From the NCBI GenBank assembly GCA_012519705.1, contig JAAYPR010000012.1, positions 1 to 64,000 on the forward strand: DNA of 64,000 nt, in the 5' to 3' direction. Under the pieces are notes generated by a model. That model had not been told where the DNA came from. It made no database searches and saw nothing but the letters and a program-made list of their open reading frames with translations. The translations under genes and the position numbers were made by a program. The stretch comes from Campylobacteraceae bacterium. Its GTDB lineage: Bacteria; Campylobacterota; Campylobacteria; Campylobacterales; Campylobacteraceae. Below, piece after piece: positions 130 through 55,463 of the stretch. How positions within the stretch are numbered: position 1 is the stretch's first letter; every line of letters begins with the position of its first letter.

Positions 130-500
130 TTTTTTGAATTTGGCTTTAAAACTCTTTTTGGATTCAAAGTCTAGATTGCTGCGATTTTCTACGAAAATCT
201 CGCAATGACGAGATGGAGCATGCTTTTTAGTAAATTTGGCTTAAGTCCACAATAGCAATGAAATGTGTGTTTTATAAATTTGGTTTTAAAGCAACTTCCA
301 AGCGTCATTGCGAGCTTGCTTTAGCAAGCGTGGCAATCTAGTTTTATAAACTCTAGAGTGAAATTTAGCGAATTTGGTTTTAGATTTTTCTTTTTAAATT
401 TATTTCTTTTTTGAATTTGGCTTTAAATCAAATTCTAGTTTAAGCTCTAGGTCCACGTTTGCTAACGCAAACTCACAATGGCGGGTAGAATGTGTATTTT
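130..500. repeat. Cluster of REP-like palindromic elements (region A)
   Basis: Units at about 171-210 (inverted), 303-341 (direct) and 447-483 (inverted, degenerate) share CGTCATTGCGAG-[hairpin]-CGTGGCAATCTAG; AATTTGGYTTTAAA-like spacers recur between them. Confidence 0.8.
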
Positions 501-43827: not shown

Positions 43828-44361
43828 ATGAACACAAGTATTGTAGGAAAACAGTTTGAACTAACTGAACCTATAAAAGAGTATATAGAAAGAGCATTTG
43901 AAAGCTTTGATAAGTATAATTTAAATATCGTAAGCATCAGATGTGTTATTTCAGCAGATGAAAAAAAGGGTAAAAAAGGCTTTGTAGTTGATCTATCTAT
44001 CAACCTACCTAAGAAAAACACTATCGTTATTTCAGGTAAAGATAAAGACCTTTATGCAGCGATTGACAGCATAAACGACAGAGCATCAAAAGTTTTAAGA
44101 AGAGAGAGTGATAAGTGGAAAACTCATAAAAATAAAGACGATATAAAAGAGGAAATTTTAGATGTACTTCACGATATAGATGAGTCTATAGATGAAGATG
44201 AAATAGTTCCAGTTGAGCTTGAGACATTTAAGCCAATGGAAGTGGATGAGGCGTTAAAAGCTCTTAAAGATAGCCAAGATCAATTCTTAGTATTTAATGA
44301 TATGGATGCTAAGATGAGAATTCTTTACAAAAGAAAAGATGGCAAATTCGGACTATTTTAA
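43828..44361 (+). CDS. hpf: Ribosome hibernation-promoting factor (long form)
   Basis: MNTSIVGKQFELTEPIKEYIERAFESFDKY...C-terminal ALKDSQDQFLVFNDMDAKMRILYKRKDGKFGLF. Confidence 0.94.
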   Translation: MNTSIVGKQFELTEPIKEYIERAFESFDKYNLNIVSIRCVISADEKKGKKGFVVDLSINLPKKNTIVISGKDKDLYAAIDSINDRASKVLRRESDKWKTHKNKDDIKEEILDVLHDIDESIDEDEIVPVELETFKPMEVDEALKALKDSQDQFLVFNDMDAKMRILYKRKDGKFGLF

Positions 44362-44386: not shown

Positions 44387-44982
44387 CGTCATTGCGAGGA
44401 GTGTAACGACGAAACAATCCACGTCGTCGTCATTGCGAGACTTGCACAGCAAGTCGTGGCAATCCAGTTCTTTAAATTTATACTGTTTCCGTCATTGCGA
44501 AGCCTTTAGGCTGAAGCAATCTCGACCTTGAATTTAAACAAATTCTAGAAGTTAAATTTGCTAAAATAGACTCTAGAATTTCAAAAACTGGATTACTTCG
44601 CTATCGCTCGTAATGACGACTACTAGCCATTGCGAAGGAGCTTATCGCTTTCTTTCGTCATTGCGAGATTTACAAAGTAAATCGTGGCAATCTAGTGTTG
44701 TGTTGCCAGTCATTACGAGGAACGTAGTGACGAAGCAATCTAAATCTTAGATTTAAACAAATTCTAGGAGTCAAATTTGTTAAAATCAACTCTAGAATTT
44801 CAAGAGCTGGATTACTTCGCTATCGCTCGTAATGACACTATCAGTCATTGCGAGCCAACTTGTTGGCGTGGCAATCTAGTTATTTGATTTAAGCGGTTTT
44901 CCGTTATTGCGAGAAACGTAACGACGAAACAATCCACGCCGTCGTCATTGCGAGACTTGCATAGCAAGTCGTGGCAATCCAG
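44387..44982. repeat. Dense cluster of REP-like palindromic elements (region B) with internal 105-bp tandem-spaced duplication
   Basis: About 10 CGTCATTGCGAG/CTCGTAATGACG-type units in both orientations; 44513-44617 duplicated at 44732-44836. Confidence 0.88.
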
Positions 44983-45003: not shown

Positions 45004-45211
45004 TTTAGGGCTAAATTCAGCCCTAAATTTATAAAAGCCTTATTCGTAAGGTTTTTATAAATTTCTCATGTAAAAGTACATATGAAAGAAATTTTAAAGA
45101 TGTTTAGTAGAGCTAAATTAAATTTATTTAGTTTGGCTTAAGTTATTAGTTCCAAATTTGTAAAAATCCTATTTGTAAGTTTTTTACAAATTTTTCGATG
45201 CAAAAGTGCAT
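45004..45211 (+). promoter_or_regulatory. Duplicated hairpin leader upstream of giant exported protein gene
   Basis: 45025-45064 AAATTTATAAAAGCCTTA-TTCG-TAAGGTTTTTATAAATTT and 45154-45193 AAATTTGTAAAAATCCTATTTGTAAGTTTTTTACAAATTT, each followed by a small ATGYAAAAGTRCAT hairpin; also TTTAGGGCT-aaattc-AGCCCTAAA at 45004-45027. Confidence 0.6.
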
Positions 45212-48200
45212 TAAAAAGGAGTACAAAATGAAAAAGTTAAATTGTTTTATAAAAGTTATAATATTAACTTTTATAATGGTTGGTTCTGGTTATGCTTATA
45301 ATCCTTTGCCATTTGGGGCATTGCCAACTGGCAAAGAACATGAGACGCATAAGGCAGATAGTGCGATGGTGAAGACAATAAGACAAGGCTCTGCCCAATA
45401 TGCTTCTTTTTATTATTATTATCAAAATACTCAAGATAAACATAAGATTAGATGGCAACCAACTGAGCAGTATAGTGGACTAAACCCATATGTTCAAGAG
45501 TTAAAAGATAATTTTATTTTCGGCGATTTTGTGATGACTGGAAGTGGCATTATTAAAGATTGGCAGACTTATCATAATGTTAAAGATTTAAATTTAGGAA
45601 GCGATAGAAAACAAAACTCATCTATGGCGCAGCTAGCTCCTATGACTGGAAAAGATAAGTATGAAAAAGTTGGTGAAAAAATAGAAGCTGATGATGTGGT
45701 TTATGCTAGACTTTATTGGCAAGGTATGCTGTTTGATAAAAAAGATTGGTATAGTGACTCCGATATAGTTCTTAGACATTTTTATGATGATATTAAAAAC
45801 TATAGAGATATCACTATAAGTGTTGATGGTTCAGCTCCTCAGACTCTCACAGCAGCTCTTGAAGACACTTTTGTAATATACAGCTCTAGCAAATACCTTT
45901 ATTCAAGCAAATATGGATATAGTTTTGAGTATAGTGCTAGCGTTGATGTTACGGAGATAGTTAGAGCAAATTTAACCAATGGTGAGATAGTGGTAGGTGG
46001 TATTAATACCAGTCTAGATAGTAAGGATAAATATTATATTCCAAATACACCAAGCAATATGGTAACAGGGTATCACTTTATAGGTAGATACAGAAAAGAT
46101 GGAGGTATATGGACAAATAACAATATTTATTCATACCCAGCTAGAGGTGGCTGGTCTTTAGTTGTTGTATATAATAATAAAGATAAATATAAGCCAAAAT
46201 CAGTAACTTTATACGATGGTTTTACAAATTTATCGTCAAGAGGTATAGATGGGGCTATAGATAGCATGACTTTGGATTTTAGCGGATTTTATACTCCTAA
46301 AAACCAAGAGTTTGATGCTAAGGCGGGGTATTTTTTAAATGGATCGTCTGGTGGCTCAACGCAAGGCATGAGATTTAGCAATAAAGCAAGTTGTTTTACA
46401 AATCCTGTTGGCGATTGTGAGGTATATGAGCTGGACGGAGAGCTTAACCCAATAGGATCTCAACTAAACAATAGTATGGTTTATTTAGATCATGATGGTA
46501 AACAAAAAAATATAACAAATAGCGGAAGAGGCATGGATTTAGATATTTATAATCTAAAAGGTAAGCTTAAGCCAGAACAAACATCTGCTTCTTTACAGAT
46601 AACTGTTAGTTCAAAGTATAACAGTCAGTATAGGGTTACGCATTTAGGTAGTGCCCTTGTTAGTACAGTTGCATTTTCAACCGACCTCTATGTTCCAAAG
46701 GTTTGCTACTATAATGTTATGTATAATAGAGCTGGTATTAGCTCTAGAGATGAAGGGTTTGTTGTAACTCCGGGTGAGCCTTTAAAAAACCATGTCTATT
46801 TTGCACTAAAAGATGCTGATGCTAAAGAAGCATATGGTCTAAAGGTTAAATCAAAACTTTCTAAAAACATAAAATATATAGAAAACACCATGCGTATAGA
46901 TAACTCTTTGAAGCACAAAGGGCAAAATGATTTCAAAGAAAATGATCTTTACTATATGAAAGACAACCAAAAAGGTCTTTATAAAGACAGCTCATACGCA
47001 GCGACAAGCTTAGTATCTGGAACTGAAGATAAACAGTTTAATAAATACAATGACAAAACTAGCATTGATTTTTATATCGGTAAAGGTTCTGGTGATATAG
47101 TTGGGGGCAAAATCTCAGGTGGAGAAATAAAAGCTGGAGAGAAGGTATATACAGAGTACTATACTACTATCGGCGGTTACTATGAAGAGCCAAAATTTAC
47201 TTATGATTTTACACTAGAGGGAGTTGAGCTTCCTTACGATGCACCTATGGAAAAATGCTATCTTGAGGGCTCAAGTGATGATGAGTGGAAAAATGAAGTT
47301 AAGGTTGTTCCAATAGATGGCTTAAGGGTTGTAAATCAAAACTATCAACAAAGAGGCGATGATGATAAGCTATATACTCAAATAGCAAGTGAGCCATTTG
47401 ATGTAAAAATAGTTTATGATATAAATATTACAGATTTTGGCAACGAAGATTTAAATACCATACTAGGAGATGATGATTTAGTCGAGTTTATGTGTAAATC
47501 ATCTAAAAATACAAATGCTTGTAAAACGTACAAAAACCCTAATTCTGGTAGCAACGAAAAGAAGCAAGCTCTAGATGCACTTAAAGCCGAGTATGAGAGT
47601 GAAAAAAATAGAATCATAGGAGAGCTTACTCAGGCAAATAGTGACTTAGCAGCAGAAGAGGCAAAGCTTCCAGAAGCTCAAGAAGAGTTAGCTAAAGCTG
47701 TGGATGAGCTAGCAGTAGCTGAAGAGGAGCTGGCAAAGGCAGAGCAAGAGCTTAGTTTAGCACAAGCAGCGTATGATAGTAATCCAAGTAGTGAGAATGA
47801 AGCAGCTTTAAATAACGCTAAAGCGAAAAGGAATGATGCCAAAAATAAAAAAGAGGATGCTGAGAATAAAAAAGCTGAAAAAGAGACAGCATTAAAAACC
47901 ATCCAAGATGAAATCACTAGACTAAAAACTCTCATAAGTAATCTTACAGGCGAGCAAACACAAATGGAGACTCCATTTAAAGATGAGTTTTCAGAGAGAT
48001 TTCAAAGGCTTGATGGGACATTTGTATTGTCTTTATTTACTAGAGAGGAGATTGCAAATTTAGCAGGCGGATATGATAAAATAAATAAAGATGTTTGTGA
48101 TGAAGCTGTAAAAGATAAGCAAAAAAATCATTTTTATAAATTTTTTGCCGATTTTAAATCTCCAACTGATGAGGGTGGAACTAGAATAGGTGATTTTGGG

Positions 48201-50936
48201 GAAAAGACAAAACTAAATCCTAAAAAAGCAAAAGGACATGCTTATAAATCTTTTGATTATTTCTTAGACACAGAAGCTAAAAAAAATGAAATTCCTATCA
48301 ATAACGTAGAGATAGGTTTCGCAAGAAAAGACTATACTTTTATCATCAGCTATTTGCCAAGCGGGGTAGAAAACTTAGGTATGTGTATAGTAAAAGAGTG
48401 TCAAGAGAATAGTGCTATTAATGGCAATGATGAAGAGATGGCAAAATGTAGAGCTAAGTGTGAGGAAAAAGCTTTAGAGGATAGTTTTGTAGATGAATAC
48501 AAGTCAAATGTTTGTAGACCAGAAAGGACATTTTCTGTAAGACCTGCTTATTTTGCTATGGAAAACAACCCTACTAGAATAGAGCCTTATGTAGCAGGAG
48601 GGAAAGAGTTTGCTGGTAAATTCGTAGATAATTTTTATCCAGTAACTAAAAAAGGCGATTATGTCTTAGGATATGATAATGTTCTTTTACCAAACGATGA
48701 TGTAGAAGATAATAAAAAAGAGACTATTTTTGGGCAGTTATCATCTACAGCTTGTCTAAAAGAGCCGATAAGCAACATTTATATTGATTTGACAACTGGT
48801 GATGTTGGATATGAAAGCAATGCTAGCACAGAGGACTTTACAGGTAAAACTAAGATATGGAGCAATCAAGAAAACTCATCTAATAACCTAAGGGTTTCTT
48901 TTGAAAAAGGAAAAAATGGAGAGACAAAATTTGAAAAAGAAAAAGAAGAGTATAATGAAATCACAGACAGAGACTCTTTAAAAACAAAAGCAAACCCTAT
49001 GAAATCATATGCAGACTTTAAGCTTAGAAATGTAGGCGGACTAAACTACTATAACATAGGCTATGCCAAGATGAGTGTAAGTGATAAGAGCTGGTCGCAA
49101 GATGGTTGTATAGATGGGAATTATACAAACGATGCTTTATCAAATGACATTAGCACTTCCAAAAAAGGCATGGTAGGATGTTATGTTGGTATAGAAGATC
49201 AAAATTTAGATAATCTAAAGGACAGAATCGGAAGTGATATTATCGCCAAGCTTATTCCAAAAGATTTGGTGTTTAAATTTAAACATAGCGATATAGAGAT
49301 TAATATCAACGATTTGTCTAACGCTTTATCTGAAAATGGTCACAACTATACATATTTTAGTGATGACAGAGATATGGTAGCTGGTCTTGATATGAGTTCG
49401 GCTGCATATTTTAACGCATACATAAATGAAGAGTTAAAAGAGCAAAAAATCTTAGCAACACTTTATAACAAAAACTGCTATGCGAGAGATATAGTTTTTG
49501 GTCTTGATTTTGAGTTTGACTGCGATGGTGATTCAGAAAATAACAACATAAGTAATACAGATAGCGTTAAGGGTACTAATCGTTGTAAAAAAATCAAAGT
49601 AGTTGCAAGAGGCGACGATGATGATGATGATGGCAAAACTTATAAAATTGCTGATTCATATAAAGAATTTTGTAATCTAAATCCACTTCACGCTCGTTGT
49701 TATAGATTGCCAAGTGACGACATACTTTATAGTTCAGATGAGAACAATAGTGTTCCAGACGGTATACTGTTTTTTGCAAAAGATGGCATAATAAATTATG
49801 ATATTAACTCAAGTCTTAGCAGTAAAGACGTAGAGTTTCCACTTAATGACAAAAAAGATTCAGTTTTAAAACCTTTATATCTTTATACTGAGCTAAAAAA
49901 AGATAAAGTGGATGATAATGTATCATCAAATAGGTTGCCTATATTTAAATTTAAAGAGAGCAGTTTTGCTAATGGCGAAAACGTTGGAGTTGTAGGCATT
50001 AACTTTGTTAGAGAGAGAAACAAGGCTTTAAACCCTAAGATAATTTATGCTGAGGATTTTGCTAAAAACAAAGATATAAAATTCCAAGAGCAGCCGTTAG
50101 TAACTGATGGCAAGATTGAAAATAATGAAGTTATGACAAGCGGTATTGTATCTGATAGACAAAATTTCAATGAATACAAGAGAAAACTTGATATTGGTGG
50201 AGGTGAAAATATTCTTGAAACGGCAGATAATGGCGTGGCACATTATTATTATGGTTATATAAATTCTGAGAGAAAATCATACGGTGTAGGAAATGACGTA
50301 ACTCCACTTAGTTTAAATGATGATCATAATATTAGTGTTTATTCTATGGTTTATTGTAGTCCAGAAGTTGATGGAAAAAAGGTTGATTGTTTTGATATAA
50401 AAAGCTTAAGCTTGCTTTATAAAGAAAACGATGGAGTTAATCAACTTCAAGTTGGCAATAGAGAATATTTCTATCAAAACCCGGCTGAGTTTAATACAGG
50501 AAATGGTAACGATAAGGCTGACTGGTTTGATGTCTACGAACGCAATGGAAATATGGTTAGTTTTGTTAAAGGTTTTGGGCAAGGAGATAGAGAGCCTATG
50601 GTAAAAGAAGCTGATACTCAAAGGCAATATGAAAAGCTGTCTGTAAAATCAAGCCATGGAGGCAGATTTAATGTGCATGTAAATACACGCTCTTGGCTTT
50701 TATATAATGAGTCTGGGCAAACTTTAACTGATGGATTTAACCTTTTTGAGCTAGAATTTAGTGACACATCAACATTCTCTGGCGAAGCTCAATGGGGTGG
50801 AGTTGGTAGAATACAAGATGCTGATGGCAAAGATACAGATGAGATAGTTGGAAGATATCTTGATGAAGAAGGCGATAAGGCTAATAAAGACAAATATATC
50901 AATATTCAAAATAAAAGCAACAGGATAACTTGGTAA
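45198..50936 (+). CDS. Giant exported surface/adhesin-like protein with central coiled coil
   Basis: Signal peptide MKKLNCFIKVIILTFIMVGSGYAYNPLP (better start ATG 45228 with AAAGGAG RBS); GGWSLVVVYNNKDKYKPKSVTLYDGF segment; coiled coil around aa 790-930; acidic D-rich segments. Confidence 0.85.
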   Translation: MQKCIKKEYKMKKLNCFIKVIILTFIMVGSGYAYNPLPFGALPTGKEHETHKADSAMVKTIRQGSAQYASFYYYYQNTQDKHKIRWQPTEQYSGLNPYVQELKDNFIFGDFVMTGSGIIKDWQTYHNVKDLNLGSDRKQNSSMAQLAPMTGKDKYEKVGEKIEADDVVYARLYWQGMLFDKKDWYSDSDIVLRHFYDDIKNYRDITISVDGSAPQTLTAALEDTFVIYSSSKYLYSSKYGYSFEYSASVDVTEIVRANLTNGEIVVGGINTSLDSKDKYYIPNTPSNMVTGYHFIGRYRKDGGIWTNNNIYSYPARGGWSLVVVYNNKDKYKPKSVTLYDGFTNLSSRGIDGAIDSMTLDFSGFYTPKNQEFDAKAGYFLNGSSGGSTQGMRFSNKASCFTNPVGDCEVYELDGELNPIGSQLNNSMVYLDHDGKQKNITNSGRGMDLDIYNLKGKLKPEQTSASLQITVSSKYNSQYRVTHLGSALVSTVAFSTDLYVPKVCYYNVMYNRAGISSRDEGFVVTPGEPLKNHVYFALKDADAKEAYGLKVKSKLSKNIKYIENTMRIDNSLKHKGQNDFKENDLYYMKDNQKGLYKDSSYAATSLVSGTEDKQFNKYNDKTSIDFYIGKGSGDIVGGKISGGEIKAGEKVYTEYYTTIGGYYEEPKFTYDFTLEGVELPYDAPMEKCYLEGSSDDEWKNEVKVVPIDGLRVVNQNYQQRGDDDKLYTQIASEPFDVKIVYDINITDFGNEDLNTILGDDDLVEFMCKSSKNTNACKTYKNPNSGSNEKKQALDALKAEYESEKNRIIGELTQANSDLAAEEAKLPEAQEELAKAVDELAVAEEELAKAEQELSLAQAAYDSNPSSENEAALNNAKAKRNDAKNKKEDAENKKAEKETALKTIQDEITRLKTLISNLTGEQTQMETPFKDEFSERFQRLDGTFVLSLFTREEIANLAGGYDKINKDVCDEAVKDKQKNHFYKFFADFKSPTDEGGTRIGDFGEKTKLNPKKAKGHAYKSFDYFLDTEAKKNEIPINNVEIGFARKDYTFIISYLPSGVENLGMCIVKECQENSAINGNDEEMAKCRAKCEEKALEDSFVDEYKSNVCRPERTFSVRPAYFAMENNPTRIEPYVAGGKEFAGKFVDNFYPVTKKGDYVLGYDNVLLPNDDVEDNKKETIFGQLSSTACLKEPISNIYIDLTTGDVGYESNASTEDFTGKTKIWSNQENSSNNLRVSFEKGKNGETKFEKEKEEYNEITDRDSLKTKANPMKSYADFKLRNVGGLNYYNIGYAKMSVSDKSWSQDGCIDGNYTNDALSNDISTSKKGMVGCYVGIEDQNLDNLKDRIGSDIIAKLIPKDLVFKFKHSDIEININDLSNALSENGHNYTYFSDDRDMVAGLDMSSAAYFNAYINEELKEQKILATLYNKNCYARDIVFGLDFEFDCDGDSENNNISNTDSVKGTNRCKKIKVVARGDDDDDDGKTYKIADSYKEFCNLNPLHARCYRLPSDDILYSSDENNSVPDGILFFAKDGIINYDINSSLSSKDVEFPLNDKKDSVLKPLYLYTELKKDKVDDNVSSNRLPIFKFKESSFANGENVGVVGINFVRERNKALNPKIIYAEDFAKNKDIKFQEQPLVTDGKIENNEVMTSGIVSDRQNFNEYKRKLDIGGGENILETADNGVAHYYYGYINSERKSYGVGNDVTPLSLNDDHNISVYSMVYCSPEVDGKKVDCFDIKSLSLLYKENDGVNQLQVGNREYFYQNPAEFNTGNGNDKADWFDVYERNGNMVSFVKGFGQGDREPMVKEADTQRQYEKLSVKSSHGGRFNVHVNTRSWLLYNESGQTLTDGFNLFELEFSDTSTFSGEAQWGGVGRIQDADGKDTDEIVGRYLDEEGDKANKDKYINIQNKSNRITW

Positions 50937-54888: not shown

Positions 54889-55112
54889 CGTCATTGCGAG
54901 TTTGTGAAACAAACGAAGCGTCTGCAGCGAAGCGTCTCGGCAGTTACGAGCGTAGCGAAGTAAAATCCATCAAATAAAATCATAAAGAATTTATAAGATT
55001 TCAACTTAAGTAAATTCCTATCTATAAATTTGCAAAAGAAAAAATCTTAAATTTACTTTAAAATTTTTAAAACTGGATTGCCACGATTTTCTACGAAAAT
55101 CTCGCAATGACG
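54889..55112. repeat. MITE-like composite element C1 (about 224 bp) with terminal inverted CGTCATTGCGAG ends
   Basis: Begins CGTCATTGCGAGTTTGTGAAACAAAC, ends GAAAATCTCGCAATGACG; near-duplicate of C2. Confidence 0.82.
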
Positions 55113-55252
55113 AGGTTAGTGGATATGTTATTATAAGAAATTTATAAAACCAAATAAAACCAAATTTTCTAAAATAAAATCTTAAACCTAAATTTACCAA
55201 AACTACCAGAGTCGTCATTTAAAAAGCAAAACAACACCAAATCCACCAGAGT

Positions 55253-55463
55253 CGTCATTGCGAGTTTGTGAAACAAACGAAGCGTCTCGACAGTTACGAG
55301 CGTAGCGAAGTAAAATCCATTAAGTGAAACTTTAAAAAAGTTATAAGATTTTTATTTAAGTAAATTCTCATCTATAAATTTGCAAAATAAAAAACCTTAA
55401 ATTTAACTCAAAACTTTATTTAAATGGATTGCCACGATTTTCTACGGAAATCTCGCAATGACG
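55253..55463. repeat. MITE-like composite element C2 (about 211 bp)
   Basis: Same ends and internal sequence as C1 with small indels. Confidence 0.82.

What the first reader, a model, noticed from the sequence alone, without database searches (positions are those of the whole stretch)
44387..44982. REP-like elements with conserved ends but compensatory variation in the hairpin stem
Across the three clusters, units share CGTCATTGCGAG-[stem-loop]-CGTGGCAATCYAG, but the stem sequences differ while remaining self-complementary: ACTTGC/GCAAGT (44428-44467, 44943-44982), ATTTAC/GTAAAT (44656-44695), CCAAC/GTTGG (44843-44879), CTTGC/GCAAG (303-341), ATTTTC/GAAAAT (171-210, 55073-55112), TTTGC/GCAAA (447-483). 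Paired substitutions that keep the fold indicate selection on, or replication through, a folded ssDNA or RNA form. In established knowledge, REP/BIME elements are mobilised by RAYT (Y1 transposase-like) proteins that recognise hairpins next to a fixed motif. No RAYT gene is in this window, so that link is inference.
Basis: partly seen in the sequence, partly recalled or inferred. Interest (0 to 1): 0.62.

Follow-up and report, generated by a model that had tools for sequence, protein, structure and literature searches.

The report
Repeat hairpins whose stems get swapped
Short DNA hairpin repeats scattered between the genes of this Campylobacter-like bacterium keep fixed ends while the hairpin between them seems to be exchanged as a block, with no sign of the transposase usually blamed for such repeats; the repeat type is known, but how it spreads is not.

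Summary
The genome holds about 200 units with fixed ends (CGTCATTGCGAG ... GCAATCYAG) around a hypervariable but self-complementary hairpin. Arm co-variation far exceeds shuffled controls (20 of 28 perfect stems against 4.6 expected). The units fit the published "CGTC-tagged REP" superfamily (Di Nocera 2013), reported to lack a dedicated transposase, but not the description of its four families. They form head-to-head pairs and mosaic arrays, mostly downstream of genes.

First, no Y1/RAYT gene is detectable in this genome, and across 397 genomes of the phylum element copy number shows no positive association with Y1 genes. Second, part of the "compensatory" variation is not stepwise: between 96%-identical relatives, several hairpins at matched sites are replaced whole while neighbouring spacers stay, and in this genome similar spacers carry hairpins about as different as random pairs.

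I favour block exchange (gene conversion or template switching using the conserved shell), with pairing kept because the hairpin moves as a unit. The exchange mechanism, the single-stranded form and any selection are inferred. The direct swap cases are few and come from relatives, not this genome.

The parts
173..210 (-). unit, hairpin GATTTTC-GTA-GAAAATC, 3' end CGCAGCAATC
303..339 (+). unit, hairpin GCTTGC-TTTA-GCAAGC, 3' end CGTGGCAATC
447..483 (-). degenerate unit, head CGCCATTGTGAG, hairpin GTTTGC-GTTA-GCAAAC
44387..44420 (+). unit of the second type (GGAGTGTAACGAC, end CGAAACAATC)
44428..44465 (+). unit, hairpin GACTTGC-ACA-GCAAGTC
44490..44522 (+). unit (AGCCTTTAGGCT), left half of a head-to-head pair
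44523..44589 (.). 67-bp AT-rich spacer of the first head-to-head pair
44590..44618 (-). unit (GCGATAGC), right half of the first pair
44656..44693 (+). unit, hairpin GATTTAC-AAA-GTAAATC
44708..44741 (+). unit of the second type (GGAACGTAGTGAC), left half of the second pair
44742..44808 (.). 67-bp spacer of the second pair; 55 of 67 bases as in the first spacer although the left hairpins differ
44809..44837 (-). unit (GCGATAGC), right half of the second pair
44843..44877 (+). unit, head AGTCATTGCGAG, hairpin GCCAAC-TT-GTTGGC
44902..44935 (+). unit of the second type (GAAACGTAACGAC), head CGTTATTGCGAG
44943..44980 (+). unit, hairpin GACTTGC-ATA-GCAAGTC
55075..55112 (-). unit, hairpin GATTTTC-GTA-GAAAATC
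55426..55463 (-). unit, hairpin GATTTCC-GTA-GAAAATC (one mismatch)

Best explanation
The units are CGTC-tagged REP modules assembled into REPIN/BIME-like head-to-head pairs and mosaic arrays, mostly downstream of genes. Each module has a conserved shell (CGTC tag, basal stem ATTGC/GCAAT, GA internal loop, YAG-type tail) and a hypervariable inner hairpin. Shown: the shell is nearly fixed, the arms co-vary, hairpins are decoupled from spacer ancestry in this genome, and between close relatives several whole hairpins were replaced at the same site with spacers kept. Inferred: the exchange happens by short-tract gene conversion or replication template switching, with the shell (and perhaps the spacers) as homology and resident copies as donors; pairing persists because a hairpin moves as a block and because broken hairpins are overwritten, repaired or selected against. 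How new copies enter new sites is unknown; a RAYT was not found and is not needed to explain the pattern in this lineage.
For: Identity: head, AT start of the stem, unpaired tail, head-to-head pairs and lack of a linked transposase match the published CGTC superfamily (PMC3733652). Pairs: 50 +-, 27 -+, 23 ++ and 24 -- neighbours, with preferred spacer lengths. Co-variation. Mosaic: spacers at least 80% alike carry similar hairpins in 6 of 46 comparisons here, against 9.5% for random pairs. Replacement in place: of 21 site-matched units in two close relative pairs, 10 identical, 4 with small changes, 7 classed as replaced; clearest are L378:6732 and L378:6799 against L386, and L381:7475 against L391. 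Shell recombination: 38-bp deletion between two TCGCAATGACA copies, L407 against L417. Most replacing hairpins have other copies in the same genome.
Against: Few secure swaps (about 3-5) and none in this genome, which has no close relative in the collection. Two of the seven 'replaced' sites are partial changes; two others rest on short repeat-like flank on one side. G013 is a draft and L386 lies near a contig end. Two replacing hairpins have no identical copy in the stretches read. The shell arms (11 and 8-10 nt) are short for RecA-dependent conversion. Stems that differ by a single pair also exist, so stepwise change contributes. Copy gain at new sites is not explained.
Confidence: 0.55

Rival explanations
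1. RAYT-mobilised REPINs: a Y1 transposase recognises the hairpin beside the CGTC tag and moves the units.
For: Layout resembles REPINs of PMC3116915: inverted REP doublets with spacers. Some high-copy genomes do carry Y1 genes (G119, G348, G378, G403).
Against: No Y1_Tnp at E<=1 in this genome; none in element-bearing genomes among 60 relatives; no positive association over 397 genomes. A lost or very divergent enzyme is not excluded.
Confidence: 0.07
2. Stepwise compensatory substitution under selection for a folded ssDNA or RNA.
For: Strong arm co-variation; series of stems differing by one pair; tandem GA/GA mismatches in 51 distinct inner sequences against no TC/TC, as if one strand folds.
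Against: Whole hairpins replaced at matched sites; hairpins decoupled from spacers. The single-mismatch strand test was not robust: G.T 13 against A.C 5, 5 against 6. The GA/GA counts share descent.
Confidence: 0.15
3. Intramolecular template switching at the imperfect palindrome copies one arm onto the other, so paired changes arise in one event without selection.
For: A documented process that creates and mends stems (PMC8794818); most stems here are perfect.
Against: It cannot turn one stem into an unrelated one, as at L378/L386. It may still act alongside exchange.
Confidence: 0.12
4. RNA-level role: transcribed hairpins downstream of genes act on mRNA 3' ends or stability, and selection there keeps the fold.
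For: Only 2 of 201 units lie in ORFs; gaps are 63 unidirectional, 53 convergent, 5 divergent, as described for REPs generally (PMC3733652).
Against: Copy number runs from 0 to 659 among related genomes, so there is no general need; both orientations are equally common (49:49); the terminator scan of the array finds only a separate hairpin at 45004-45027. Avoidance of promoters is also expected of a tolerated repeat.
Confidence: 0.08

Closest known systems
CGTC-tagged REPs (Di Nocera, De Gregorio and Rocco 2013, PMC3733652), which include Neisseria dRS3 and Rickettsia RPE-4/RPE-6
   Same: Terminal unpaired CGTC (TGTC variants), stem starting with AT, short unpaired tail, mostly head-to-head pairs, no linked transposase.
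   Different: Published stems are 8-9 bp with 4-5 nt loops and clusters and tail-to-tail pairs are rare. Here a 5-bp fixed basal stem, an internal loop, a variable inner hairpin with 3-4 nt loops, frequent clusters and 27 tail-to-tail neighbours. The consensus figure of the paper could not be read here.
REPINs / BIMEs with RAYTs (PMC3116915, PMC8266576)
   Same: Inverted REP pairs with spacers, mosaic arrays, mismatches in the stem.
   Different: GTAG-tagged and linked to RAYT genes; no RAYT found here.
Integron attC sites (general knowledge)
   Same: Conserved base of a folded site with a variable inner hairpin.
   Different: No integron integrase above cut-off in element-bearing relatives; no gene cassettes.

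Membership tests
CGTC-tagged REP superfamily | Short palindromic repeat with an unpaired CGTC motif at one end | tested here: met
   98 exact units; folding leaves CGTC unpaired
CGTC-tagged REP superfamily | Head-to-head dimers predominate | tested here: met
   50 of 124 neighbour pairs are +-, the largest class
CGTC-tagged REP superfamily | No dedicated transposase linked | tested here: met
   No Y1_Tnp in the genome; other transposase classes beside units were not surveyed systematically
CGTC-1 to CGTC-4 families | Stem of 8-9 bp with a 4-5 nt loop | tested here: not met
   5-bp basal stem, internal loop, variable inner stem, mostly 3-4 nt loops; exact consensus sequences of the four families not read
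CGTC-1 to CGTC-4 families | Clusters and tail-to-tail pairs rare | tested here: not met
   27 tail-to-tail neighbours and frequent arrays
REPIN with RAYT | RAYT (Y1 transposase) in the genome, flanked by the repeat | tested here: not met
REPIN with RAYT | Inverted REP doublet with spacer as a unit | tested here: met
Integron attC | Integron integrase present | tested here: not met
   TIGR02249 above cut-off only in G039, G042 and G057, none element-bearing

The most novel reading that the evidence does not exclude
A dedicated but unidentified activity, not a RAYT, reads the folded shell (tag, basal stem, GA internal loop) on one DNA strand and inserts or swaps hairpin cassettes. This would explain why one shell recurs across many phyla and why hairpins turn over faster than their surroundings.
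Probability: 0.15. Interest if true: 0.8.

Novelty: new variant of a known kind. Interest (0 to 1): 0.45.

Why it matters
How CGTC REPs spread has been open since 2013. This phylum offers a natural experiment: 0 to 659 copies in related genomes, mostly without Y1 genes. Replacement of whole hairpins at matched sites suggests that co-variation in a repeat family can come from block exchange, so such co-variation should not be read directly as selection on structure.

Tried and rejected
RAYT link: not supported in this lineage. IS110 and integron integrase: no association. Rfam: no match in the window. Exact motif in the literature: no relevant paper found. G.T against A.C asymmetry as a strand test: looked suggestive (13:5), did not hold with end-anchored stems (5:6), so not used. 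The C(GNA)G loop excess lacks a sound null: its control run mis-counted triloops, so only raw counts are given. Helicobacter cinaedi prophages as a population test: one invariant unit each in 12 records. Second species pair G190/G293: one usable site, unchanged. Plasmid search: one weak Legionella hit. Orientation along the chromosome: the G006 listing is cut, so no claim is made. Low-copy genome G004 searched for a linked mobiliser: none seen near its units.

Full report
What is there. The 836-bp gap between a ribosome hibernation factor gene (43828-44361) and the ORF at 45198 holds ten units with the head CGTCATTGCGAG (or a close variant) and the end CAATCYA. More lie at 173-483 and 54889-55463. 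The motif count is far above chance (18 against 1.45). The genome (1.72 Mb, 52 contigs) has 98 exact units and about 200 with relaxed matching in the stretches fetched around them. Only 2 of 201 lie inside ORFs of 120 aa or more; gaps with units are unidirectional or convergent 116 times and divergent 5 times. Eight relatives have no exact head motif in the stretch around the same gene.

Anatomy. Unpaired CGTC, basal stem ATTGC/GCAAT, internal loop GA against GTG or GAA, inner hairpin, tail YAG. Folding as single-stranded DNA gives this structure with z between about -2.5 and -3.5 for first-type units; the one second-type unit tested did not fold this way (z -0.5). Inner hairpins differ in sequence and length: 111 distinct inner sequences among 201 units. 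Units pair head-to-head around AT-rich spacers of preferred lengths (66-68, 103-105, about 150 bp). In the low-copy relative G004 the stretches around its hits contain three such pairs with 67-68 bp spacers. The two composites in the window share 55 of 67 spacer bases but have different left hairpins.

Is the pairing real? Yes. In 28 distinct units of one layout from this genome, 95.9% of stem cells pair against 71% after column shuffling, and 20 stems are perfect against 4.6 after re-dealing arms. In 85 units from several phyla the contrast is 47 against 2.7. These controls do not remove shared descent.

Where the variation comes from. Two close relative pairs allowed matched sites to be compared; nearly all usable sites come from one of them (G006/G013). 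Among 21 site-matched units, 10 hairpins are identical, 4 have small changes and 7 are classed as replaced. On reading the alignments, the most secure are two successive sites in L378/L386, where the spacer between them differs at about one base, and L381:7475. L459:732 and L458:810 rest on short, repeat-like flank on one side, and two others (L366:1071, L381:6796) are partial or weakly matched. L386 lies near a contig end of a draft genome; L391 does not. Most replacing hairpins, not all, occur elsewhere in the same genome. In this genome, spacers at least 80% alike carry similar hairpins in 6 of 46 comparisons, close to the 9.5% of random pairs; the comparisons share units and are not independent. 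Hairpins therefore behave as exchangeable blocks. One deletion between two shell copies shows that the shell itself recombines (L407/L417).

Which strand folds. Tandem GA/GA mismatches occur in 51 distinct inner sequences, TC/TC in none, and C(GNA)G loops recur; the sequence GCGAAGC, an exceptionally stable DNA mini-hairpin in the literature (PMC10527192, found; abstract only), is present in the shortest units. These favour the CGTC strand as folded DNA, but common descent inflates the counts, and the single-mismatch test did not hold up (13:5:6). I treat the single-stranded form as inference.

What moves it. No Y1_Tnp match in this genome or in any element-bearing genome among 60 relatives. 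Over 397 genomes, 72 carry the motif; Y1 genes are in 4 of 23 genomes with 20 or more copies and in 120 of 374 others (p=0.17; genomes are related, so the p-value is only a guide). IS110 and integron integrases do not fit either; other transposase classes were not searched. The same shell occurs in many phyla and in viral contigs. The mobiliser is unknown, as stated in 2013 for CGTC REPs (PMC3733652).

Comparison with what is known. The units meet the superfamily definition of CGTC REPs but not the stem, loop and clustering description of its four families. They work like BIME/REPIN mosaics in layout but fail the RAYT criterion. Template switching (PMC8794818) and gene conversion are known processes that could produce the pattern; choosing between them needs experiments.

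Verdict. It is a new variant of a known repeat kind with an open spreading mechanism.

Noticed in passing
window 54889-54960 and 55253-55300; L318:868-927: Unit heads run into another small repeat (GAAGCGTCTCGGCAGTTACGAGCGTAGCGAAG) instead of the usual end.
   Followed up: no
L364, L366, L389, L400: G006 and G013 carry a second dispersed repeat of about 200 bp (around GGGGGAAGGGGCGCGACCTCGCAATTCAAGCCCCCTTCCCCC), 91-93% alike between copies, sometimes next to the units.
   Followed up: no
L506-L517: Twelve Helicobacter cinaedi prophage records each carry one unit with an identical hairpin (ATTTTGC-AAA-GCAAAAT).
   Followed up: partly
window 45198-50936: 1912-aa ORF beside the array without any Pfam match.
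   Followed up: no
G022 (659 exact units in about 1.9 Mb): A related genome with an extreme copy number, while two genomes of the same genus have 18 and 0; a good place to look for a mobiliser.
   Followed up: partly
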